A DNA stretch of 31,778 nt from a virus: positions 1 through 31,778 of IMG/VR virus record IMGVR_UViG_3300004369_000078. One strand, 5' to 3'. Positions 2,274 to 18,100 of the stretch are shown here, one piece after another. The translations under genes and the position numbers were made by a program. The notes beneath the pieces were generated by a model. It was not told the origin of the DNA, searched no databases, and was given only the letters and a program-made list of their open reading frames with translations. Each line of letters opens with the position of its first letter. Within the stretch, counting starts at the first letter, position 1.

Positions 2274-2417
2274 ATGGCTGTTAAAAAATCTGTAGGTACT
2301 CGAAACGTTGATGTAGAAAGTACTCCTAAGAAAACTTGTCAGGGAATGGGAAAACACACTAAATATTCAGCAACAAGCCGCAATAAAGCTCGCAAACGCT
2401 ATCGAGGTCAAGGATAA
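2274..2417 (+). CDS. Small basic conserved phage protein, 47 aa
   Basis: ATG at 2274 with a good SD (GAGGA, 2262-2266) opens 47 codons. The product begins MAVKKSVGTRNVDVE. It ends in a highly basic tail with the pattern SATSRNKARKRYRGQG, preceded by KKTCQGMGKHT. I recognise this as a small Lys/Arg-rich protein recurrent in T4-like cyanophages; its function is not known to me. The charge suggests DNA or RNA binding or packing in the virion. The next gene starts 5 nt after its stop, and that gene's SD (AAGGAT) lies at the end of this one, so the two are probably translated together. Confidence 0.7.
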   Translation: MAVKKSVGTRNVDVESTPKKTCQGMGKHTKYSATSRNKARKRYRGQG

Positions 2418-2422
2418 GGATA

Positions 2423-2887
2423 GTGGATGATATTGAAAAATGGATTGATTATGTAAAGATAAACAATCCAGATCTCAAAGGTCATTCAATTTGTCCATTT
2501 GCAAAGTCAAATACGTATAAAATAGTAAAATCTCCAATTAATGACATCAAACCTCTTGATGAAGAGTTTGGTGTTGTTGTTTTTATTGTAGAGGATGATT
2601 TAGATTGGGAGTATGCGCTTCAAAAAATTGACGAATTGAATCAAAAATATCCAAAATATAAATTTTTTGACGATTTTAGAGACGATCCTAGTTTTATTAA
2701 TGGAGTGCAAACAAACAATGGCAAATATAACCTTATTTTGTATCAAAATTCTGAATTTCTAACAAAAATGAGATCTATTTTGGCAAAAACTAATTACTAT
2801 GACTCATGGGATGATGAATATTTAAAGAAAATTTTGGAAAAAGATTATGAAATGGTCCAAAAAATTAGAAATGACTTAAATTGTTAA
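2423..2887 (+). CDS. Paralogue A of a duplicated ~160-aa protein
   Basis: GTG at 2423 is the start: an AAGGAT SD lies just upstream and no in-frame ATG comes earlier. The 154-residue product shares a clear backbone with the gene at 3077: a W-I-x-x-V start, a GHSICPFAK motif (residues 20-28), a VVVFIVEDD strand, YKFFDDF, TNNGKYNLILYQ, then YYDSWDDEYLKKIL and a DYE near the end. The -S-I-C-P-F-A-K segment recalls the Cys-Pro-Phe-Ala motif of DUF1415, but I cannot confirm membership. Function is unknown. No signal peptide or membrane segment is seen. Composition is AT-rich like the structural block. A late-type promoter overlaps its stop codon. Confidence 0.65.
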   Translation: MDDIEKWIDYVKINNPDLKGHSICPFAKSNTYKIVKSPINDIKPLDEEFGVVVFIVEDDLDWEYALQKIDELNQKYPKYKFFDDFRDDPSFINGVQTNNGKYNLILYQNSEFLTKMRSILAKTNYYDSWDDEYLKKILEKDYEMVQKIRNDLNC

Positions 2888-2894
2888 ATAAATA
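2888..2894 (+). promoter_or_regulatory. Late-promoter-like motif overlapping the stop of the 2423 gene
   Basis: ATAAATA sits within TTAAATAAATA, whose first TAA (2885-2887) is the stop codon of the preceding gene. The T4 late promoter consensus is TATAAATA with no -35 element. It ends 24 nt before the ATG at 2918. Confidence 0.45.
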
Positions 2895-2917
2895 AAAGAT
2901 ATACGATATAAATTAAA

Positions 2918-3073
2918 ATGTCAGATTCAACTCCATCCCTGGGTCCAAATTTAGCTGACGCAGCACCAGCAGCACCAGAAAATGCAAAAGTTTTTGGATA
3001 TGATGTAGCTGCACAAGCAAGACAAACTCCCGCTCAAAAACCAAATCCAAATTCACCTCTTGCAGCTGGTTGA
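2918..3073 (+). CDS. Ala/Pro-rich small protein, 51 aa
   Basis: ATG at 2918 opens 51 codons ending at TGA 3071-3073. The product begins MSDSTPSLGPNLADAA. It is rich in Ala, Pro, Gln and Asn, with a central segment NAKVFGYDVAAQARQTP. It has no hydrophobic core and is probably extended or disordered, as in a linker or a peptide that binds another virion part. I think similar short proteins occur in T4-like cyanophages but cannot name a function. It lies between the two paralogues and ends 3 nt before the second. A late-promoter-like motif lies 24 nt upstream. Confidence 0.6.
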   Translation: MSDSTPSLGPNLADAAPAAPENAKVFGYDVAAQARQTPAQKPNPNSPLAAG

Positions 3074-3076
3074 TAT

Positions 3077-3571
3077 ATGGCCTTATATGAAGATGATGGG
3101 GTCTTAGACGATAAGGAAAAGTATATTTTTCAATGGATAGGAGAAGTTTCCGAAAAAAGACCAGAGTTGGGCGGACACTCCATTGACCCATATGCAAAAA
3201 ATACAAAAGTTTCAATCGTAGAAACACCAATTGATGAGATCGTACCCGAATCAGGTCACGATGTCATCATTTTTATTGTGCAAGATTTTTGGAGACCCTT
3301 CGAAGTCGAACGTTGGGCTCAGTTTTATAATGAAAAATTCACTTATTATAAGTTTTTTGAGGATTGTGCATCAAAAAATACGCAAATTGGTGAAATTTGG
3401 ACAAATAATGCGAAATATAACTTAATTTTATGTCAATCTAAGAGAAAATTATCAAAAGTAAAGGAATCTTTAACAACTTCATCTTATTATCAATACTGGG
3501 ATGAACAATACCTGAAACAGGTCTTCGGAGAAGACTATGAAAAGGTTAAAATCATAGAATCTGAAGAATAA
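3077..3571 (+). CDS. Paralogue B of a duplicated ~160-aa protein
   Basis: The 164-residue product aligns along its length with the protein from 2423. Shared landmarks are W-I-x-x-V, GHSIDPYAK, a VIIFIVQD strand, YKFFEDC, TNNAKYNLILCQ, YYQYWDEQYLKQVF and a final EDYEKV. The Cys of the SICPFAK motif in copy A is Asp here, so if that Cys is catalytic or metal-binding this copy has lost it. The N-terminus is longer by about nine residues (ALYEDDGVL). ATG at 3077 follows the upstream stop by 3 nt with no clear SD, which points to translational coupling. Function is unknown. Confidence 0.65.
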   Translation: MALYEDDGVLDDKEKYIFQWIGEVSEKRPELGGHSIDPYAKNTKVSIVETPIDEIVPESGHDVIIFIVQDFWRPFEVERWAQFYNEKFTYYKFFEDCASKNTQIGEIWTNNAKYNLILCQSKRKLSKVKESLTTSSYYQYWDEQYLKQVFGEDYEKVKIIESEE

Positions 3572-3642: not shown

Positions 3643-3873
3643 ATGTCCAATTTATCGATAAATAAAACCCTAGATATGTGGGGAGATGCAGTGTCGCCCG
3701 CAAAAGAGACGGAACCAAAGAAAAAGCAAGTGATTCAAGAGATTATGCACGATCTCGCACCGATTCACGACCTAAAGAAACAGACAGATCTTCACGAAAA
3801 AATTCGTAATGATGATGACTATGACGATTGGGGTTATGGTCTGGAGGTCACTTATGGCAAAAAGTGTCTGTGA
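3643..3873 (+). CDS. Charged small protein, 76 aa, unrecognised
   Basis: ATG at 3643 follows an AGGAG SD by 7 nt. The 76-residue product starts MSNLSINKTLDMWGDAV. It has a Lys/Glu-rich linker (ETEPKKKQVIQEI), a predicted helix (DLKKQTDLHEKIRN) and an acidic, aromatic end (DDDYDDWGYGLEVTYG). There is no membrane segment. It lies directly before gp25, where small virion or assembly proteins would be expected, but I recognise no family. The last codons overlap an 11-codon frame with a strong SD (3854-3889). Confidence 0.6.
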   Translation: MSNLSINKTLDMWGDAVSPAKETEPKKKQVIQEIMHDLAPIHDLKKQTDLHEKIRNDDDYDDWGYGLEVTYGKKCL

Positions 3874-3895: not shown

Positions 3896-3911
3896 CTAAG
3901 AAGTTTGAGTA

Positions 3912-4310
3912 ATGGCTACGATTTCTCGCAAATTTACAGACATAAGTCTCTCTTTTGTGAGAAATCCAGTGACTAATGACATCTTGGTGATAACTGATGC
4001 TGATGCAATTAAAAAATCTGTTATTAACTTAACTCGTACTCGAATTGGAGAACGATTTTTTAATAATTTAATAGGAACTTCAATAGATAATTCACTGTTT
4101 GAGTTACAAACCCCAGAAGTTGCGGATTACCTACAGACTGAAATTGAAACATTATTGAAAAATTATGAACCACGAATTGGAAACCCCATAGTCTCAGTTA
4201 CTTATCCAGAAGAATCAAACGAAATGAATGTTGAAATTGTATATGATATTCTTGGCTTACCATTTCCTCGTCAAACTGTAACTTTCATACTGCAACCCAC
4301 TAGAGTCTAA
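3912..4310 (+). CDS. gp25: Baseplate wedge protein gp25
   Basis: The 132-residue product has the length of T4 gp25 and the features of the GPW/gp25 family (PF04965). These are an N-terminal FTDISLSF segment, the hallmark TRTRIGERFF (residues 41-50) with its Arg-x-Gly-Glu-Arg core, and a C-terminal beta part ending in a VTFIL strand. In T4, gp25 sits in the wedge core next to gp6 and gp53 and helps start sheath assembly. The family is also found in contractile injection systems. Its TAA stop shares one base with the gp6 ATG (TAATG), so the two are probably made in step. A late-type promoter lies directly upstream. Confidence 0.92.
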   Translation: MATISRKFTDISLSFVRNPVTNDILVITDADAIKKSVINLTRTRIGERFFNNLIGTSIDNSLFELQTPEVADYLQTEIETLLKNYEPRIGNPIVSVTYPEESNEMNVEIVYDILGLPFPRQTVTFILQPTRV

Positions 4311-6175
4311 TGTCTTTTAATCAATTCACTAATTTAGACTTTTCCGATCTAAGGGCTCAAATTAAAGATTATTTAAGAACAAGCAGTAAGTTTACTGACT
4401 TTGACTTTGAGGGGTCTAATTTCTCTGCACTCATAGACCTGCTCGCATATAATAGCTACATAACCTCATATAACACCAATATGGTGGTGAATGAGGTGTT
4501 TTTAGATAGTGCTACACTAAGAGAGAACGTAGTTTCTCTTGCAAGAAATATTGGATATGTGCCAAAATCCAAAAGAGCTGCACAATCAAAAATTTCATTC
4601 ACAGTTGATATGAGTGCGACCGCAGCAAGAACCGTTACTCTTTTATCCGGACAGGTTGCTTTAGGTTCTGTAGTTAATGGTAATTATATTTTTTCGGTGC
4701 CTGATAACGTTATAGTTCCCGTACAAAATGGATTTGCTTCTTTTGAAGAGTTGTCCATCTACGAGGGCATTTACTTAACAAGTACTTTTATCGTGGATAC
4801 ATCACAACCAAACCAGAGATTTATTCTCCCAAATATTAATATAGATACCACTACAATACGAGTGACCGTTTCTGATGCAGTCGATGAGGTATATACTGCA
4901 TTCACAAATGTTCTCAACGTCAATAAAACTTCGAAAATATTTTTAATACAGGAAATCGCAGATGAAAAATATGAAATTAGATTCGGCGATAATATTGTTG
5001 GGAAAAAACCTAAGAATGGAAGTAGGATTAAAGTTTCTTATATTATAACTAATGGATCTTTGGGGAACGGTGCAAGTAATTTTACATTTTCTGGACTTCT
5101 TAGAGATAACGATGGACTACCTATTACTACCCAAATTTCTGCGCCAATCACAGTAGATAAATCTGCAGATGGCGATGAAATTGAAAGCTTAGATTCAATT
5201 AAATTTATAGCCCCTAGGATATATGCATCTCAGTTTAGAGCCGTGACATCTAATGATTACAAGGCACTAATACCTACAATTTATTCAAATGTTGATTCCG
5301 TATCTACCTATGGTGGAGAGGAATTGGATCCACCAGAATATGGAAAAGTTTTTATATCAATTAAACCAAAAAATGGTACATTTTTGTCACAAGTCACTAA
5401 GAGGGATATTCTGAGATCTTTAAAACAATATTCGATTGCTGGAATTAAACCGGAAATTGTTGATTTGTCTTATCTCTATATTGAAGTAGACTCTACTGTT
5501 TATTATAATTTAAATTTCACTACTGGGTCTCAAGTTGTTAAGTCTAAAGTTTTAAATACTTTAACAACATACGGAAACTCAAAAGATATTAATAATTTTG
5601 GAGGAAGATTTAAATTTAGTAAAGTTAATGCACTGATTGATTCTACGGATAAATCAATTACCTCCAACATTACTAAAGTTATAATGAGAAGAGATTTGAA
5701 TCCAGAAATTGATAATTTTGCTACATATGAAATATGTTTTGGTAATTCAATTTACGTTAGAGATAGTGGATATTCAGTAAAATCTAGTGGGTTTACTATT
5801 GATGGTCTTGAGGGAACCATTTATATGGCCGATATCCCAACATCCAAAATAAAAGGAAGAATATTCTTTTTTAAACTGGAGAAAAATGAACCCATACTCG
5901 TCAAAAATAATGCAGGAACAGTTGATTATGTAACTGGAGATCTTCTTCTTGATGTTGTAAAAATATCTGGATCGGCATTGAGTAGTGGATTTATTCAAGT
6001 TCAAGCTATACCACAGTCCAATGACATCGTTGGACTCCGAGATTTATATCTTCAAGTTGACATTCAAAATTCCGTGGTAAATACAATAGAAGATGTTATA
6101 TCTTCTGGAGAAAATGCATCTGCGACACAATTTGTTTCAACTTCAAGTTATCTAAACGGAAAGTATACAAGATAA
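4310..6175 (+). CDS. gp6: Baseplate wedge protein gp6
   Basis: The 621-residue product is close in size to T4 gp6 (660) and has the same place after gp25. It starts with FTNLDFSDLRAQIKDYLR and a segment (FEGSNFSALIDLLAYN, about residues 34-49) typical of T4-like gp6. It continues with a helical region (RENVVSLARNIGYVP) and long beta-rich domains. T4 gp6 dimers form the inner ring that ties the six wedges together, and with gp7 they make the heterotrimer wedge core. The middle carries a J-like segment (DEKYEIRFGDNIVGKKP, about 222-238) recalling baseplate J proteins. It overlaps gp25 by 1 nt and ends 1 nt before gp7. Confidence 0.88.
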   Translation: MSFNQFTNLDFSDLRAQIKDYLRTSSKFTDFDFEGSNFSALIDLLAYNSYITSYNTNMVVNEVFLDSATLRENVVSLARNIGYVPKSKRAAQSKISFTVDMSATAARTVTLLSGQVALGSVVNGNYIFSVPDNVIVPVQNGFASFEELSIYEGIYLTSTFIVDTSQPNQRFILPNINIDTTTIRVTVSDAVDEVYTAFTNVLNVNKTSKIFLIQEIADEKYEIRFGDNIVGKKPKNGSRIKVSYIITNGSLGNGASNFTFSGLLRDNDGLPITTQISAPITVDKSADGDEIESLDSIKFIAPRIYASQFRAVTSNDYKALIPTIYSNVDSVSTYGGEELDPPEYGKVFISIKPKNGTFLSQVTKRDILRSLKQYSIAGIKPEIVDLSYLYIEVDSTVYYNLNFTTGSQVVKSKVLNTLTTYGNSKDINNFGGRFKFSKVNALIDSTDKSITSNITKVIMRRDLNPEIDNFATYEICFGNSIYVRDSGYSVKSSGFTIDGLEGTIYMADIPTSKIKGRIFFFKLEKNEPILVKNNAGTVDYVTGDLLLDVVKISGSALSSGFIQVQAIPQSNDIVGLRDLYLQVDIQNSVVNTIEDVISSGENASATQFVSTSSYLNGKYTR

Positions 6176-6176
6176 A

Positions 6177-9100
6177 ATGTCAGAAATTAAAAGAGTTAAA
6201 ATTGATTCTATCCTCGAATCCCAAATTCCAGAGTTTTTAAACGAAGATTCCCCACTATTTCTGGAATTTTTAAAACAATACTATCGTTCATTGGAACACC
6301 AAGGTGGAACCTTGGATATTGTCAATAATTTAAAAAAATATAAGGATATTGAAGCCTTCAATAAAGAATCATTAAAACCAAGCACAACCTTAACTTCTAA
6401 AGTATTAGCTTTCGATTCTACTATCAACGTAGTCTCCACAGTTGGTTGGCCCGATACATATGGACTACTTAAAGTTGATGATGAAATTATCACATACTTA
6501 TCTAAAACACCAACTTCTTTTGTAGATTGCATGAGAGGATTTAGTGGTATTGATAAAATTGAATCTGTCGAGAATCCGGAATATCTTAGTTTTTCAACCA
6601 CATCAGCATCAGAACATTCTAATAATTCTACAATACAGAACTTAAGTAATTTATTTTTAACTCAATTTTTCCAAAAGTTTAGGAATGAATTTTTTCCTGG
6701 GTTTGAAAACAGAGAGTTTCTAGGCGGCTTAGAGTTACCAAACATATTAACTAGTGCTAAAAATTTCTATAGTAGTAAGGGAACGGATTCTTCTTATAAA
6801 CTTCTTTTTAAGATACTTTATAACACTGACATTGAAATTGTTAAACCACAAGACTATACTTTAGTTCCATCCTCTAATGTGTACTTTGTTACTAAGAATA
6901 TTCTTGTTGAGAAAATTGGTGGAACCGGAGATCCCTTATATTTGCCTGGTAATTTTTTATTCCAAACTCTTCCTGGAATTGGAACTGTAAGTGCATCTAT
7001 TTTTAACGTAGAATATAGACCGGTTGATAAAAAAGAATTATACGAAATTTCTTTAGACTCTACTTCTTTAAGTGGTACTTTCCAAGTTTCTGGTACAACC
7101 AAAATATCGGAAGATGTTGCAGTCGGATCAGATACAATTTTAGTAGACTCTACCATAGGATTTGCTCAACAGGGATCGATTATAATTATAACAAAAACTT
7201 CCGATTTAGTAACAATTAATTATACTGATAAAACTACGAATCAATTTTTTGGTGTTACCGGCGTTGATAGAATACTTCCCTTTGGTACAGAGGTAGTCGA
7301 ACAAAAATTTGCTGTCAGTGTTCTTGAATCTGAAAGTGATCCAATAAATTTTAGGGTCATTAATGTAATTGATACCATAGATTCCAGTAAAACCTCTAAT
7401 ATGCGTGTTGGGGATAAGGTAAGATTATCTGGATTCGGTAAAGACTTATCATCCAAAGTGGAGTTTAATAACTGGATCTACAACATTCCAACGTATCATA
7501 ATACGAGAACTGTTGTTAAAGTAAGTAATACTTTATATCGAATAAAATTATATGATGCAGTTTACTTTTATCTAAATGAAAATATTATATTATTTGATGA
7601 AAATGATAATACATTACTGGGTTCTATAAACTCTATTGAATATTCCAATCCAACAATTAAAAAATACGCCGACAGTATTCTGGTTCAAGTCAATTCAACT
7701 GCTGGATATGAGGTTACTAACACAATTGGTATACGTAGAAAAATTAATAAGGCAAAACACAATACGGATTATTTTCCAAATTTAAGTAAAATTCCTACAG
7801 GAGTACAAAATACATATCTGGATACTGCCGAATCGTCGATGTTTGTGACATCAACAGGTATTCCAAACTATACTATATCCGCAACTGATAATAAATCTAC
7901 AGTAACAACATCTGGTGCTGGTACAACTGATGTTTTCTATTCTCCAAATCACCCATATGTTACGGGAGAAAGCATATATTATCAGCCGTATGGAAATTCT
8001 GGAATTAATACTGGTGCATATCAGTTAACAAAAATTAGTAATGATACTTTTAAATTATCCTATAGTAAGGCTGATATTTTTTCAAAAACATATATTACGG
8101 CTAATTCTGGCATAACGTCAGACAAAATTGTAAAATTTGGTTATGAAAATAAAACCATAAAAAATCAAAAGTTAGTAAAAGAGATAAATTTAGTACCAAC
8201 TCCTCTTGTAATAGCCGATAACGAAAGCACAAGAGTATCAACCGGAGATAACAAACAACTTGCATTGTTGTCAAATGGCGTCGAATTATATTCCCCCACG
8301 ATATTTGACGAAACCATACATTATGGAAAACTAACTTCGATTGAAGTTCTATCTTCTGGATCTGAATATGACGTTCTATCTCCACCAAATCTAATAGTAC
8401 AAGATACTTCTGGATCTGGAGTTAAGGCAAAACTTAATATTACAGGAAATGTAAAGCAAGTAAATATCATATCTGCAGGAGTGGGGTATCAAACTAAGCC
8501 CAAAATTACCATTTCTGGTGGTAATGGATCCGATTGTGTATTGGAATCAAATTTGGTAAGTGCAAAAATTGTTGCAAAATTTAAAGGAAATTCATCAGTT
8601 TCTGTAGGCAATGATACCATTACATTTGATGAACAATTATTATTTGATGATAATGAGGAAGTAGTATACAATAATAATGGAAATGTTTCCATCGGTGGGC
8701 TGACAAACGGAGCAATTTATTACGTTGGAATACATACTACCAATGTTATTAAATTATATACTACTATCCAGAATTCTTCTGCTAAAATTAATCCAATTAA
8801 TCTGACTTCGGTTTCTAACGGGACTAATGATTTTACTACGGTAACAAATAAAAATACAATCTCTAAAATATATGTTAAAAATCCCGGAAAGGGATATTCC
8901 AATAGATCTATAAGAGTTCCATCGATACTTTCATCTAATAATAATGTGTCGGGAATTAATACTTTCGATTCTTACATTTTTGCAACAAATCATGGATTTA
9001 AATCCGGAGAAGTTGTAAGATATTCCTACACCGAATCCCCAATATCTGGACTGTCTTCACAAATTAGTTATTATGTAGATGTAATTGATACGAATAAATT

Positions 9101-12100
9101 TAAATTAGCTTCTGCTGGAATAGGTGCGACTTTAGGTAACGTCAATCTTATCAATAAACGGTATGAACCTCTCAATACTTTAGGACTTGGAACTCATATA
9201 ATTCAGTATCCACCAATAGTTGTATCTGTCGAAACCATATCTGCTATAGGGGCTACAGTTAATGTTCAACCCATATTGAAACCGGTGATACTTGGTTCAG
9301 TCGAAGATGTGTTCTTGGAAGATGGCGGCGTTGCATTTGGATGTACAAATATTGTTAATTTCCACAGAAGACCAGTGGTCACTCTCCCGAGTATTGAGTC
9401 TGAAGCTTTATTAAAACCTATTATTGTCAATACTTCCATTGTGGGAGTTCAAATTATTAATAAAGGTCGGGGCTACAGAGAAGACGCTACCATCAATATT
9501 GAATCGATAGGTAAATTTTGTGAACTTTTACCTACAATACAAAACGGATCAGTAGTTTCGGTAACTGTAATTCGTGGTGGAATAGGATATGCAGCAACTA
9601 ACACTACATTAAAATTAGAAAATAGTGGTAGTGGACTGAAATTGTTAGCGAATGTGAATGAATGGAAAATAAATCAAGTAGTAAAATTGAAAAGTCGAAT
9701 AACCGAGGATGATGGTTTAATCTATCCTAGCAAAAATCCCGAGTTGGGGTTACAATTTGTTAATCTTTATATTCCAAGAAGTCTTAGACTTCAGTTGGGA
9801 GATAATATTAATCAAAATCTTACAGAACAAGCAGCACAAATTCATTCACCACTTTTAGGATATGCTTATGACGGCAATCCAATTTATGGACCATATGCAT
9901 ACAGTAAAAACTTAGGTGGTCCAATTGAAAGAATGACATCTGGATATGTTCTTGATGTAAATCCAAATTCTAATTTAAGACCTCCTGGGTTTGAATCTGG
10001 ATATTTTGTCGATGATTATGTCTTTATTGGAACTGGCAATTTAGATGAATTTAATGGTAGATACTGCATAACTCCGGAGTTTCCCAACGGAATTTATGCA
10101 TATTTTACTACAGTAATTATAAGCACTTCTGGTGGAGGCCAAAACATTCCTGCCGGTCTTGCAATTCCTGAATATCCCTATGTTATTGGGCCCAAATTTA
10201 AAGATGTTCCTATCGTAAACAATTTCCTACCAAAATTCAATCAAGATTTATATAATTTTAATACTACTCTAAGTAGAAATATTTCGCCATATTACTTGAA
10301 TTACTATAATTCTGGATATGAATTGATCAATTCTGTGGCTAATGATTACAAACAAGAATTTAGAGTTGAATCTGTAAAATCCGACAAAATAGACAAAGTA
10401 AGTATTTTTTCGCCTGGGGAGAATTATGCAGTTAATGATGTGGTTGTTGTTGATAATGAAGACACTGGAGGAACTTCAGCTAGTATTAGTATTTCTAGGA
10501 TTTCCGGAAAAACAATTTCCAATGTTGAGTTTGTTGATGAGTTAATACCAAACATTGATTTTATTGTAAAATCAAATAAAATTGTAGTAGATTGTTCTGG
10601 TCCTCACGGATTGGGAGACGGTGCTGCAGTCAGAATACTAGGAATATCCACCGTAACTTCTTCATACTTAGAGGGAATACGATATATAAAAGTAAAGAAA
10701 AAAGAAGTTGGCTTAGCGAAAAGTGTTGCTGACGTAGGAACTACAGGCGCTTCAACTAAAATTGTAGTATCAGATATTGCTGGATTTGAGCCAAATGATT
10801 TTATTGGCATCGGAACTGAAATTTTACATATAACTAAAATTAACAAACAAGAATCCTCGTTCTCGGTTAATAGACTTTCAAACACAGGAATTCATACTGT
10901 TGGAGTAGATAATGTAGTCTTATTACCTAAGAAATTTGAATTTATTTCGGATAAAGATCCTGTTGATTATGTAATCGGAAACACAACAGTATTTTTTAAT
11001 CCAAAGGAAGATGTAGGCACTGGATCTGATGGAATCAACCGTTTGATTACTGGGCTAACTACATCTTTTTATAGAACTCTGCCAGCCAAGTCAATTTATT
11101 TTTCTGAAGGCCACAAGTTTTATACTGGGCAAGAACTAATTTATAATTGTGGATTTGGGGGAACATCTCTATTTGTTAACAATATTGGATCTGGAGTTTC
11201 ATTTAAACTTGAAAATAATCAAAAAGTATACGCAGTAAACTTAGGAAACAACTATCTTGGACTTTCTACAGTAGGATTTACATCTACTTCGGGGATTGGT
11301 AGTCAATTTAATTCATTGGAATTTAGAGATCTCAATGAATTCTTTGGAGTGATTGGAGTCGGACATTCTCTTACTACAACAAATCCAAAAATTATTGGTA
11401 ACGAAAAAAGAATTTACCTAAAATTTACTACTGCAACTAATCACGGACTTACTACGGGAGATCATATAAAATTAAACTTAGATATTGTCGATGAAGAAGT
11501 AATAAAAGTAATATATGACAGAGTAAATAGAAAAGTATTAGTAAAAGAAATTGCATTCACAGATTCCAATGTCTCTTCAGTAAATGATACTATTGATATT
11601 TCTAGTTATACTGGAGAAATTAAAACTGGAGATAAAGTTGTTTACATTGCAGAAACTCCAATTTCGGGATTATCGCATTTTGGAATTTATTATGTTATAA
11701 AAAATAGTCTGAATACAATTAGATTAGCTCAATATCTTTCCGATATCTATCCAATAACTTCTTTTGTCACAAATGATCAAGGTGTCCCACTTATAGGACT
11801 GCCAAATGTACCAATTAAGTATATAAATTTTGGATCTACAGGAGGTTCTGTACAAAAAATTTATTTTGTAAACCCATCAATAAATATTTTTAGAGGTAAT
11901 AAACTTAAATTTGATTTAAGTGACGCATCACTTTTAAATATGAAGTTGAATTTTTACTCAGACTCACTTTTGGATAAAGAAATTCCAGTTGTTGGAAAAT
12001 CTTCAACAGGATTCATTATTACTGAAAATGGAATTCCGGGAGATTCTGGTTCATATCTAAAAATTGATACGGCACTGCCAGGTACTCCGAGAGCATTTTA

Positions 12101-15100
12101 TTATAATTTAACTTCAACTAACTTATCTGAGTTAGAAAAAGTGCAATTAAGCACAGATTATGAGGTAGTTGGAAATAATCATATAGAGTTATTATCACAT
12201 TCCTTAAATGGAACTTATAAAGTTGAGGTGCTCAATAATAATGTATTTGCGATTGAAAATAATAAAAATTTAACTTACATCGAAAGTCAAGCCGTAGGTG
12301 GTGCAATAAAAACGTATGATACGGATTCGCTCACCGCAGCTGGCCCAATATCCAAGTTAAAGATTAATTTCGCGGGCCGAGGATATAAGAAACCCCCTCT
12401 AGTTAAAACCATACAATCTCACCGCGGCAATAATGCTATAGTTAAAATTGATTCACCAAATATAGGTAGAATTGAAAGTTTTGTAAAAATAAAAGATGGG
12501 TTCGACTATCCAACAGACCCAACCCTGTCACCACAGATGAGTTCGCCATCAGTGGTGTCAATAAAAGATATTCAAAGTATAAAAGATATTTCTGTGATTT
12601 TCGGTGGAAGGGGATATAATAATCCTCCTGCGTTGTTTGTTCCAGAAAACCCAAATATAAAGTTGGAAGCTCAGAGTTTCAATAGTTCTGCTGGAATCGT
12701 TGAATCGGTCAGAATTGTCAAAAATTCTACAGAAATGTCTAAACCTTTAGAAATAGTAACTATCAGAAATTCTAATGGATATGACGTAGACTTTGTAACT
12801 GTCAATGGCGAATTGGTAACTTTAGAATTGGCTAATAGTGACTTTATTCCTACAACGTTTGGGGGCAATCAATCTATCTTCCCATTCTCCATCGGAGACC
12901 AAGTTTTCTTGGAAAATTGTAGATTGACTTTTACCACACAAGGTCAAGCAAATTTCAATTCATCTAGTTATAAGTATCAATTCTTCCCCGTAGTTGGAGT
13001 TAGTACCTCTAATAATACGGTTACATATTCAATGAGTGGAATTTCCACTGGAACTCTTGGTACATATGACTCAAACATTCCTTCGGGCATTGTTGTTAAC
13101 AAAAAAGATATGCCTATTTTCAGAATGAATTTGATTGAAAATGTATCTTATTTTTCAGGCGAGATTGTTAATAGCAACAAGTTTCAAGCTAAAGTACTCG
13201 AAAACGGATGGGACGGCAAACTTAATCAATTAAGAGTCGATTCTGGAGCAGGTGAACTTGAAATTGGATCTAAGTTATTTGGTCAAGAATCTAAAACAAA
13301 TGGAACAATTGAAAGTTTTAATACGTTTATTATGAATTCAACTTTGGGAGTTTCCAGAGATAAAGTTGGTAATATAGATAATTCAGTAGGCATATTAAAC
13401 GAGTTCCAACAAAGAATTTCTGACAATTTTTACTATCAAAAATTCTCATATTCAATTAAAGGAGATATTCCCTATAGCTCATGGAAGGAGTCTGTAAGAT
13501 CCTTAATTCATCCTTCTGGATTCAAAGAATTTTCAGATTTAGTGATTTATTCTGAACCACAACAGACTTTATACAGTGAAAACAATTTAAAACCCAAAAT
13601 ATTAGATTCTACATCTATAATAAATGTTAGTGTTGATAATGAAATATCAATGTATGACAAAACAAATTTTACAAAAGTTTATGAAGAAGATTCTCTTCCA
13701 GACGGTTCTATTGAAACCATTTATATTAATGATGGGTTAATATTAAAACCATATATTAATAACAAAACCAATAAGGTTCTAAAAATTGATGATATATCCG
13801 ATCAATTTAATGGAAGAAGTTTCCAATCCCTTGGCAATCGTTACGCTGATGCATCTGACCTATTATTATATAATCGTAGTTTTATTCGAGAAGAAGTAGT
13901 CGGATTCGTAACGGCTACATATCCATCTATACTTGCAAACGTTGATTGGGACAGAACCATAACCAGCGAAAAATTTGGGTCAGTTATAGATTCTATAGCT
14001 CATGACTTAAGATATGAATCAAATAATAAATCTACCGAAGTCGGACTATCTTATTGGAGTGGTGTGGGTACAAGTTATGTTGCTGGAGAAGTTACGGAAA
14101 CTATAGCTGGACTTAAGTATATTCTGGAACTATCTAAGTTTATTATTAACAATGTAGGCGTACAGACCTCGTACAATCTGTCAACATCTTTCAGCGTATC
14201 CAACTTAACTTATAATAATATATCAGGAATTGCAACTATTACCACAACGGCTCCACACTTATTGACAAATAGTGATTATGTTGTTTTAAAAAATATTGTT
14301 TTATCATGTAATTCTGGCGGCGGATTATCAACCGCTATTTTCCCAAGTCTTGGAGCGGGTCCTGATGGCAACCCAAGTCTCTCTCCTAAAGGATTTTCAT
14401 ATAAGGTAAGTGTAGTAGGAGTCAATACCTTCACAGTTAATCCTGGAATATCAACGATACCTCATGCATATCAAAGTGGCGGTACAGTACAAAAAGCATT
14501 TATAAATGTGGGCCAAGAATTTGATCTAACTATTACAAAAGATACTTCTTGTAACTCTACTTATAATCAAAATTGTTGTGCAAATCAAACTTCTGCGATA
14601 TCCAATTTAATTGGAATAGTTACTAGTATTGTTGGTATTGGAACAACAACTGCTCCTTCAAATATAATTTTACCATCTCTGACTAGAGGGGGATCAATAG
14701 TTGGACTTTCTACGTTTAAATTAAAAAATAAAGGCAAACCTCTATTTAAACATATATTTGAATCTGATGCATCTTTTATAGATGTTGCAAACAATAAATT
14801 TTTTATTACGAATCATAATTATCAAAGCGGTCAAGAACTAATATATCAATCCACCAATTCCCCAATAGGAATCGCTACAACTTCTTACGTTACTGGCATC
14901 ACGTCTTCATTGGTAAAAGTTGGTAATTTTGAAGGAACGGCTATACTTGAAAATGGACTTACAGTAGCTATTAGTACATCTATTACTGGAATATCAACTA
15001 TATTAGTTCCTGCAGGCCCCAATTTCCAACAATACTCTTCTGTGATAGGAATTGGAACTTTGGGAACTGGAGCTGAATTCAATGTTTTTCTAACTTACGA

Positions 15101-18100
15101 TACTGGTACTGGTGTTCCAATAGGAACGTCGATTGTCCTTAATAGAGGTGGAACTGGATACAAAATAGGCGATACTGTGGCTATTGCAGGAACGTACATG
15201 GGAGGTGCATCGCCCACAAATAATCTTAGTTTCATAGTATCAAAAGTCACACCAACAGAGGTATCAGCTCAATCAAATGTTACGTATAGTAATGTTCCAT
15301 CTACGGACGGTAGTGGAGCAACATTTAATATTTCAAGGGATATCGATGGTTATGTGTCTAGTGTCGATGTAGTTAATGGTGGTGTAGGATACTCATCAAC
15401 ATCTAAAGTATCTATTGCAGGTACTTATGTTGGAGGAACATCACAGGACATTGTAACGGTCTCTCCAACAGAATTGGGCACCAATATACTACCAAAAGTG
15501 GTATATGTAATAAAATTGAACGATAATGAGTTTAGAGTTTCTGGATTTGGTACTGGTGGTCTTATAAAGTTGACTGGCATTGGTAGCGGACCTCACTCAC
15601 TTACATACTCCAATCCAGATCCAAGTGTATTAATCAGTATTGATGGTATAGTTCAATCAGCTTTAAGAAGAAAATCATTACAAGTAGTCTTATCTCAACC
15701 AGTTTCAACAGCAACTACCACTCTACTATCCATTTCTTCTGGCATTTCTTCATTGGCTATAGGTGATATTATTAATATTAATAATGAATTGGTAGTAATA
15801 AAATCCGTAGGAATTGGATCTACCAATATAATTGAAGTTTCTAGGGGAGCTTTTGAGTCAATTTCTGGAGTGCATACAGTAGGTGCTGCTTGTTCGGTGA
15901 TGTCTGGAGATTTTAAAATAATTGGAGATACAATTCATTTTACTGCAGCCCCATATGGTAAAGTTGGTCTTGTTGGTTTGGAAACGGGATCAAACTTTGG
16001 GGGAAGAGTTTTTTCTAGAAAATTAGATGCAAACAACCCAATTGATCAGAATATCATATTAGATGATATATCTTTGTCATTCACTGGATTAGCTGCAACA
16101 CAATTTAGTTTAAAATCTAATGGTAATGCAGTCACGGCTTTGTATAATAATGTCAATAATTCGTCACTTATTAATAATAATCCACTCATATTAATCAATA
16201 ACGTACTCCAAGAATCTGGAGTAAAATATGAAATTGAAAATAACGCACAAAATCAAATTAATTTTATAGATGGTCCTCCAAAAGCAGGTAAAATTGTTAA
16301 AGTTGGAATAATGAGTGGATTTGGATATCAACCACTACTTGTAGCCGCTGCTGAAGTTGCCGTATCAGCTTCAGGAACAATATCTTCAGTAATTTTGACT
16401 GGCAAAGGAGGCGGATATCGACAATCACCAGTTATAAGTGTGGCTTCAACTATCGGATTTGGTGCAAGTATAACAGCCACAGTTGGGGTTAGTGGTACTA
16501 TAACAGGTTTTACTATAGTAAATGCAGGAACTGGGTATACATCAACATCTATCCCTGTTGTTAATATTGGTATTCCTACAGGATATAGTAATCTTCCCTT
16601 AACATACTACTCCCCATCGACTGGAGTTGGTCAAGGAGCAAAAGTAACGGTTGTGGTTGGTTCCGGATCTAGTATAATTTCATTTGCAATGGATCAACCA
16701 GGTGTTGCATATAAAGTGGGGGATGTTCTTACCGCTACTGGGATAACGACTGGTCCAGGACTCCGAACGGATATACTAAACATTACAGATTTTACATATA
16801 ACAATGTAAGCGGAATAAGTACAATAACTACAGATATCACTCATAATCTTAAGATAGATGATAATATAAGAATTTCTGGAGCGGCATTTACCTGTGGTTA
16901 TGATGAAGTTGGAATTCAAACATTCTCATATGATAATATAACTGGAATCTGCACTGTAGTTACATATTCTCCTCATGGACTACTAAAAACTGGAGTTCCA
17001 TCTAATCAAACGAGTGATGAAGTCTTCTTATTCAATTTACCTTTTTCTTGCGCTGCAGGATATGTTGGCGTAACAACTACAATTTTTCCAGATGGGACTT
17101 CACCATTTGGTAGAGTATTTCCGGTGCTGAGTTCTGTCGGATTGAATACATTTACTATTAACGCTGGAATTTCAACAATTACTCATACCTTTACTGGATG
17201 GCCAGAGATCGGAATTAGTACATTCACTTATGAGGAATTCACGGGAATTTCAACAGCAACTACAAGTTCAGATCATGGATTTGAAGTCGGAGACAAAGTA
17301 ACTCTTTCTGGTCTTGCTTTTACTTGTGCTGCAGAATATGTTGGCGTAACAACTACAATTTTCCCAGATGGAACTAGTCCGTATGGTTATACACTTACGG
17401 TAACTGGAGTAACTACAAATACATTTACATTTAATGCTGGAATTTCTACTATTGTACATAATTATGTAAGTGGTGGAATTACTAAGAAAGTTCCAACTTC
17501 ACAACGAGTTCTAAGATTTACTGATGAGAGTACTGATAATTCATATGATTTTAGAGTTATTGGATTGGGAGGAACTAATCAATTTACAATTGTTTCTTCT
17601 GCATCTACTATTAGTCATTACTATGTTCAATCTGGAATAGTAAGTTTTAGATCATTCGAGCCATTTTTACTCACAGTCCAAGAAGTTGAAACCGATAAGT
17701 TCGCTGGATTTTATCCAGGACAATTTATATTGTTTGCTAGTATTACTGACCAATTCAATGGATTCAAAAAGAGATTTACACTCAAGGCAATTATTGAGGG
17801 CGAGCCGCAACAAATAAGTTTTAGAGTACCCCAAGGGACTGATTTGGATATTACTAATAATATTTTCATATATTTGAACGATGTTCTTCAAATACCTGGA
17901 GAATCCTACACGTTTGTTGGATCTAGGGTAATATTTACTGAAGCTCCAAAACCAAATAGTTTTTGTTCTATTTTTTATTATAGGGGATCTTCTTTGGATG
18001 TTGAGGAAATAACTCCTCCTGAAACAATTAAAATAGGAGATGGCGTTACAATTCGAGAAAATCCAAATGATCCTCTTGATATTGATCAATTTGAAAGAGT

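What the first reader, a model, noticed from the sequence alone, without database searches (positions are those of the whole stretch)
2423..3571. Paralogous gene pair split by an unrelated 51-aa gene, with Cys to Asp change
The proteins at 2423 and 3077 align end to end, but an Ala/Pro-rich gene lies between them. The motif GHSICPFAK in copy A is GHSIDPYAK in copy B. If the Cys matters, the two copies have diverged in role, for example one active and one structural or regulatory. The family is not one I can name with confidence.
Basis: partly seen in the sequence, partly recalled or inferred. Interest (0 to 1): 0.52.

Follow-up and report, generated by a model that had tools for sequence, protein, structure and literature searches.

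The report
Borrowed gene beside its Cys-less relative
A virus of marine cyanobacteria carries two versions of a gene its relatives keep single: one borrowed from another virus line with the conserved cysteine intact, one resident that has lost it, in a family that looks like a small branch of a recently recognised group of heme enzymes.

Summary
In detail: A (2423-2887) and B (3077-3571) align end to end (39% identity), with a 51-aa gene between, and Cys24 of A is Asp37 of B. "Paralogous pair" is misleading. The gene is single-copy in 20 of 20 records searched whole. B, with the 51-aa gene before it, is the native copy of this phage line. A groups inside another phage clade (97% support), has no counterpart in the closest backbone relatives, and is bounded by a 6-bp junction (2867-2872). 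A is a laterally acquired relative, not a local duplicate. The Cys is in 90 of 93 non-redundant members; the three lacking it are window B (Asp) and two close relatives of B (Gly, Asn). B still evolves under purifying selection. Profile and fold comparisons put the family, formerly of unknown function (phrog_10325), beside DUF6875, DUF1415 and YqcI/YcgG. AglA of YqcI/YcgG binds heme through the aligned Cys, and DUF6875 is reported as heme-binding. In 9 of 28 phage amidinotransferase loci a family member lies close by, which points to guanidine chemistry. Best reading: A is a Cys-ligated, probably heme-binding oxidase; B is a Cys-less derivative. Heme binding, substrate and B's role are inferred.

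The parts
2274..2417 (+). 47-aa gene (sm47, phrog_516), conserved left neighbour; its 3' end (2388-2418) is similar both to A-type loci and to the native backbone, so it is the likely left recombination point
   Evidence: PHROG E 2e-21; blastn extents
2423..2887 (+). copy A, 154 aa, GTG start, Cys-bearing, laterally acquired member of phrog_10325; GC 27.5%, the lowest of the 8 genes measured
2492..2494 (+). TGT codon of Cys24 of copy A (proposed heme-thiolate ligand)
   Evidence: conservation; alignment to DUF1415/YqcI Cys
2867..2872 (+). AGAAAT, right junction: DNA similarity to A-type loci ends at 2872 (L008, L012), similarity to the native backbone L067 begins at 2867
2918..3073 (+). 51-aa Ala/Pro-rich gene (M), fixed upstream partner of copy B in its own clade
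   Evidence: 31 of 31 B-clade rows with more than 250 bp upstream held; 0 of 32 A-clade rows
3077..3571 (+). copy B, 164 aa, native copy of this lineage, Cys-less
3185..3187 (+). GAC codon of Asp37 of copy B, at the place of the family's Cys
3643..3873 (+). 76-aa gene (d76), conserved right neighbour of the locus
3912..4310 (+). gp25 baseplate wedge gene, marker of the conserved locus
   Evidence: Pfam GPW_gp25 E 3e-9

Best explanation
The locus between a 47-aa gene and baseplate gene gp25 holds, in T4-like cyanophages, one gene of a small family (phrog_10325) with a Cys-bearing four-stranded fold related to the DUF6875, DUF1415 and YqcI/YcgG families. Its invariant Cys corresponds to the Cys that ligates heme iron in AglA, so Cys-bearing members, copy A included, most likely bind heme through that thiolate and oxidise a small nitrogen-containing (guanidino or amino) compound. 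In this phage line the native copy B had lost the Cys (Asp here, Gly and Asn in its two nearest relatives) while keeping the fold and the other invariant residues. A Cys-bearing copy from another phage clade was inserted between the 47-aa gene and the 51-aa gene, by homology in the 47-aa gene on the left and a 6-bp match on the right. A would then supply the Cys chemistry; B would be kept as a catalytically altered partner or regulator. Shown: two copies, separate clades, Cys pattern, junctions, superfamily relation (by statistics). Inferred: heme, oxidation, substrate, role of B, and the order of Cys loss and A gain.
For: Single-copy rule: 20 of 20 records searched whole have one match, 25 of 25 isolate records have one place with either query, and among 226 fetched loci only the two that are the window itself (L072, L073) have two. 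Lateral origin: A inside the A clade (97% support at 32 rows, 99% at 33), B with L067 and L068 (100%) inside the M-bearing clade (99%); A-type loci have no M (0 of 32) and mostly SpeD (26 of 31), B-type loci have M and no SpeD (0 of 32); L067 and L068 go straight from sm47 to M; junctions. Cys: 90 of 93, and 6 of 6 further amidinotransferase-linked members checked. Fold: AlphaFold pLDDT 94.5 (A) and 84.3 (B); the five AglA entries rank first for both models (A Z 5.4-5.7, 128-137 residues; B Z 5.8-6.4, 144-149 residues; next rows 3.6 and 4.1). Profiles (one pair each): family-DUF1415 P 4.2e-4, DUF1415-YqcI 1.6e-6, divergent family members-DUF6875 6e-7, DUF6875-DUF1415 3.2e-7; observed scores exceed all 200 or 100 column shuffles in each of the comparisons so tested; unrelated controls P 0.088-0.88. 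Cys falls on Cys in the alignments; in AglA that is Cys44, which ligates heme and is essential (PMC12866846, passages seen). DUF6875 proteins reported as heme-binding tryptophan oxidisers (PMC13307353, passages seen). Amidinotransferase neighbours: 9 of 28 loci.
Against: No direct profile link between the phage family and YqcI/YcgG (P 0.21). No library hit in Pfam or NCBIfam above cut-off for A or B. Foldseek gave no PDB match with E at or below 0.001; AglA appears only in the second-look aligner, with Z below 8, a range the tool calls possibly no more than a common arrangement. By my reading of the alignments, the AglA heme-propionate residue Arg166 is an Asn in the phage family and DUF1415, and the long C-terminal loop that makes AglA's pocket is missing. 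The window (31.8 kb) holds no amidinotransferase or SpeD, and 19 of the 28 amidinotransferase loci show no family member in the DNA held. L067 and L068 lack A here, so B's Cys loss cannot simply be put down to relief by A. The family lies among baseplate genes, so a virion role is possible.
Confidence: 0.5

Rival explanations
1. Local tandem duplication of one ancestral gene, followed by divergence and insertion of the 51-aa gene.
For: Same family, same strand, adjacent.
Against: A and B lie in separately supported clades; A-type loci and B-type loci have different gene orders; the nearest backbone relatives L067 and L068 have only B; M belongs to B, 31 of 31.
Confidence: 0.03
2. The Cys protein is not a heme enzyme: it is a small virion or assembly protein of the baseplate region, with the Cys for disulfide, metal or structural purposes, and B is a structural variant.
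For: Fixed position beside gp25/gp6 (gp25 or gp6 in the held stretch of 81 of 84 non-redundant rows); no conserved propionate Arg by my reading; small size.
Against: Significant profile links to DUF6875 and DUF1415 with Cys on Cys; members occur away from the baseplate beside amidinotransferases.
Confidence: 0.3
3. Gene displacement in progress: A is replacing B, and B is a decaying remnant that will be lost.
For: B clade lost the Cys, three different residues in three members, long stem 0.46, raised dN/dS 0.24-0.38.
Against: dN/dS is still well under 1, and the open frame and all strictly invariant residues other than Cys are kept in B; L067 and L068 keep a Cys-less B with no A at the locus.
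Confidence: 0.25
4. The two-copy arrangement is an assembly chimera of two phage genomes.
For: The window is a virus record of a collection of metagenome-derived contigs, and no second contig with both copies was found.
Against: A chimera would need two exact gene-boundary joins on both sides of A within one B-type backbone; A is 81% or less identical to every other protein in the tree set; flanks on both sides are B-type.
Confidence: 0.07

Closest known systems
phrog_10325 (unknown function)
   Same: Both copies match over most of their length; same genomic place in isolate cyanophages such as S-PM2 (S-PM2p077), Syn1 and S-SCSM2R.
   Different: Isolate records show one copy each, with Cys in the seven read; the window has two, one Cys-less.
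DUF6875 (PF21780), reported heme-binding tryptophan oxidisers
   Same: N-terminal helix and W...LG...CP[FY] motif; divergent amidinotransferase-linked family members score P 6e-7 and up to Pfam E 0.0009.
   Different: Below the Pfam cut-off; phage proteins are shorter (about 150-170 aa against 191-243 for the full-length DUF6875 proteins used).
DUF1415 (PF07209)
   Same: CPFA motif, W before it, T-N before the last strand.
   Different: Invariant HP and TNR of DUF1415 are not kept in the phage family; function of DUF1415 unknown.
YqcI/YcgG family, AglA (PF08892)
   Same: Four-stranded sandwich with the Cys after helix 1; five AglA entries are the top fold matches for both models.
   Different: No direct profile link; C-terminal loop and propionate Arg absent by my reading.

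Membership tests
phrog_10325 | PHROG profile match over most of the protein | tested here: met
   A residues 4-138, E 1e-26; B residues 12-149, E 8.5e-20
phrog_10325 | Cys in G-x-x-x-C-P | tested here: met
   met by A; not met by B (Asp); 90 of 93 members have it
YqcI/YcgG (PF08892) heme enzymes | Pfam profile match above cut-off | tested here: not met
   no match for A or B up to E 10
YqcI/YcgG (PF08892) heme enzymes | sandwich fold of AglA | tested here: inconclusive
   top-ranked for both models but Z 5.4-6.4, below the 8 that the tool treats as safe
YqcI/YcgG (PF08892) heme enzymes | thiolate Cys after helix 1 (Cys44 of AglA) | tested here: inconclusive
   aligned Cys on Cys through DUF1415, no direct profile link; absent in B
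YqcI/YcgG (PF08892) heme enzymes | heme-propionate residues Arg166, Lys196, Arg200 | tested here: inconclusive
   read by eye: the Arg166 place is Asn98 in the phage family; the other two could not be placed
DUF6875 (PF21780) | Pfam match above cut-off | tested here: not met
   A and B no match; divergent relatives 16.1-19.8 bits against cut-off 24.5
DUF1415 (PF07209) | Pfam match above cut-off | tested here: not met
   no match for A or B; own record 0 of 1
heme-thiolate protein | bound heme, Cys ligand | not testable with these tools
   needs purified protein

The most novel reading that the evidence does not exclude
Cyanophages encode a miniature heme-thiolate oxygenase, widespread and so far nameless, that works on guanidino or amino compounds (neighbours: amidinotransferase, AdoMet decarboxylase); in this phage the Cys-less native copy and the acquired Cys-bearing copy act together as an enzyme and a pseudoenzyme partner.
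Probability: 0.22. Interest if true: 0.82.

Novelty: new variant of a known kind. Interest (0 to 1): 0.6.

Why it matters
The family lies in a fixed place in cyanophage genomes and had no function. Tying it to heme-ligating relatives through one invariant Cys, and to amidinotransferases by gene neighbourhood, gives a directly testable function. The window is a natural experiment: a Cys-less and a Cys-bearing copy side by side in one genome. It would also join four families (phrog_10325, DUF6875, DUF1415, YqcI/YcgG) into one group; the literature searches here for DUF1415, YqcI and DUF6875 found 2, 13 and 1 papers. Of these I opened two (PMC12866846 and PMC13307353, passages only): the first holds no mention of DUF1415 or phage, and I saw no such link in the passages of the second. 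The other papers I saw as listings only.

Tried and rejected
Local duplication: rejected by the tree. GST-omega/thioredoxin-like CPFA reading (recalled motif): not pursued, as the predicted order of helices and strands starts with a helix before the Cys and no thioredoxin fold appeared among the rows shown. Direct phage-family to YqcI/YcgG profile link: not found. AglA by profile from the phage family or DUF1415 in PDB sequences: not found. Foldseek against PDB: nothing at E 0.001 or better; EEP phosphatases and IF3 only as weak rows. Foldseek against viral models: the strong rows (5 with E at or below 0.001) are unnamed or uncharacterised viral proteins; 2 carry a name line, an uncultured Caudovirales phage and S-RIM32. 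Papers on S-PM2p077 or phrog_10325: a search by gene names gave only unrelated 'P077' listings among the 10 shown. Cyanophage plus heme plus baseplate: 4 listed, none opened. Cyanophage plus amidinotransferase: 1 listed, not opened. Plasmid search with a divergent member: no match. sigma-70 promoter scan: 11 sites against 6.8 expected, uninformative. The deletion reading of the L067 spacer (scar of a lost copy A) is not excluded; the insertion reading is preferred because L068 also has an alignable spacer and most A-type proteins end IRNK where the window ends IRNDLNC, by eye. Rows dropped before counts: the 93-row set is 84 rows left after clustering 207 viral-contig copies at 88% identity, plus 7 isolates and 2 window copies; L010/L075 (one contig, broken frame) and L066/L112 (one contig, start not held) were left out of it; YqcI row L270 was dropped before profiles as partial. 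The tree is a quick-mode tree.

Full report
Observation. The window is a 31,778-base viral fragment from a T4-like cyanophage: gp25 at 3912-4310, then a long gp6-like ORF; isolate cyanophages carry the same locus next to gp25 and gp6. They align end to end at 39% identity (E 4e-33), match the same unknown family phrog_10325, and differ Cys to Asp at the conserved motif.

Not a local duplicate. In 25 isolate records each query finds one place per record. Twenty records behind loci, six of them isolate genomes of 187-244 kb and the rest phage contigs down to 4.7 kb, each hold one match. Of 226 fetched loci, only the two that are the window itself hold two. Two locus types exist. A-type: sm47, A, usually SpeD (26 of 31 rows with more than 500 bp downstream held), d76, gp25, and never the 51-aa gene (0 of 32). 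B-type: sm47, 51-aa gene, B, d76, gp25 (51-aa gene in 31 of 31 rows with more than 250 bp upstream held), never SpeD (0 of 32). The window is B-type with A added. In the quick-mode tree of 93 rows A falls in the A clade (support 97 at 32 rows, 99 at 33), B with L067 and L068 (100) in the M-bearing clade (99). A has GC 27.5%, the lowest of eight genes measured there.

Junctions. DNA similarity to A-type loci L008 and L012 ends at 2872; similarity to the B-type locus L067 begins at 2867; the shared letters are AGAAAT. On the left both similarities overlap in the 3' end of sm47 (2388-2418). This fits homology on one side and a short match on the other. With a third A-type locus, L030, the right end of the similarity runs to 2886, so the exact right edge rests on L008, L012 and L067. 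That L067 once had A and lost it is not excluded. The nearest sampled A-type genes are saturated at synonymous sites (dS above 1), so the donor itself is not in hand. Separately, window and L067 are nearly identical from about 3900 on (98-100 of 100 per full bin) but 71-88 of 100 per bin between 2900 and 3900, a sign of recent exchange here.

The Cys. In the 93-row non-redundant set 90 have Cys; the others are window B (Asp), L067 (Gly), L068 (Asn). B keeps every residue that is strictly invariant in the rest of the family except that Cys. The Cys-less group shows dN/dS 0.24-0.38 in three pairs, against 0.06-0.17 in six Cys-bearing pairs: relaxed, but still selected. L067 and L068 have no A at this locus, in contigs of only 4.7-4.9 kb, so whether B lost Cys before or after A came cannot be told.

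Fold and relatives. The model of A is confident (pLDDT 94.5), that of B less so (84.3). Foldseek against PDB gave nothing significant, but the second-look aligner put five entries of one protein, AglA, first for both models (A Z 5.4-5.7; B Z 5.8-6.4; next rows 3.6 and 4.1). AglA belongs to YqcI/YcgG; its heme iron is held by Cys44 and mutation of Cys44 abolished activity (PMC12866846, passages seen). I then collected DUF1415 (20 sequences), YqcI/YcgG (13 after dropping a partial one) and DUF6875 (8). Profile comparisons, each a single pair: phage family-DUF1415 P 4.2e-4; DUF1415-YqcI 1.6e-6; DUF6875-DUF1415 3.2e-7; divergent phage members-DUF6875 6e-7; the same-DUF1415 2.3e-5; DUF6875-YqcI 3.4e-3; phage family-YqcI direct 0.21, no link. 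Column shuffles never reached the observed scores (200 each for three comparisons; 100 each for three more). Unrelated controls gave P 0.088-0.88. The Cys columns coincide along the chain phage-DUF1415-YqcI-AglA. DUF6875 proteins are said to be heme-binding tryptophan oxidisers (PMC13307353, passages seen). That the Arg166 place is Asn in the phage family is my reading of those alignments and speaks against an identical heme site.

Neighbourhood. One A-clade member (L106) starts directly behind an amidinotransferase gene (PDB matches HsvA 8e-13, AGAT 2.5e-10, SxtG 6e-8). Searching with that amidinotransferase gave 28 loci; 9 (two of them identical in this stretch) hold a family member within about 0.5 kb, in at least four arrangements, one of them (L291) in the baseplate locus itself. 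All six further members checked keep the Cys. Since the family occurs once in a genome of roughly 200 kb, chance would give about one or two in a hundred (inference). YqcI/YcgG enzymes hydroxylate guanidines (PMC12866846, abstract passage), so the association makes chemical sense. It is not general: in S-SCSM2R the two genes are far apart, 19 of the 28 loci show no member in the DNA held, and the window has neither amidinotransferase nor SpeD.

Verdict. A laterally acquired, Cys-bearing copy beside a native Cys-less copy, in a family that very probably belongs with DUF6875, DUF1415 and YqcI/YcgG. Step confidences (mine): lateral origin 0.9; superfamily 0.85; heme on the Cys 0.5; guanidino or amino substrate 0.3; B as a working partner rather than a remnant 0.4.

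Noticed in passing
L106 1763-3734 (whole contig L271); L273, L277, L278: Family member directly behind an amidinotransferase and before an 88-aa monooxygenase-like ORF (below cut-off), with a 2OG-Fe(II) oxygenase upstream; the same stretch in two contigs.
   Followed up: yes
L295, L296, L302, L303, L304: Divergent family members near amidinotransferases in phage contigs; in L295, L296 and L303 a small ORF resembling the arginyl-transferase C-terminal domain (Pfam scanned for L295 and L296 only, below cut-off; L303 by eye) lies nearby, and in L295 and L296 a DUF6614 gene.
   Followed up: partly
L291 2546-4299: An amidinotransferase gene follows the family gene inside the baseplate locus (sm47, family gene, amidinotransferase, GDSL-like ORF, d76, gp25).
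   Followed up: partly
L008 950-1291 and other A-type loci: AdoMet decarboxylase (Pfam E 8e-31) follows the A-type gene in 26 of 31 non-redundant A-clade rows.
   Followed up: partly
window 3900-6388 against L067: Near-identical DNA for about 2.4 kb after a 71-88% stretch: a recent recombination edge just before gp25.
   Followed up: partly
L010 1344-1370 (same contig as L075): A-type copy with a frame broken after 9 codons although the similar sequence continues; real loss or sequencing error not decided.
   Followed up: no
L148: A contig binned as Lewinella carries the family gene beside gp25 and gp6, so it is probably a cyanophage-like contig in that bin.
   Followed up: partly
window 6177-20264: Single ORF of 4695 aa after gp6, with only a weak baseplate wedge match at its start.
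   Followed up: no
L001 3201-3812, L005 3520-3999: 2OG-Fe(II) oxygenase genes annotated beside the family gene in isolate cyanophages.
   Followed up: no
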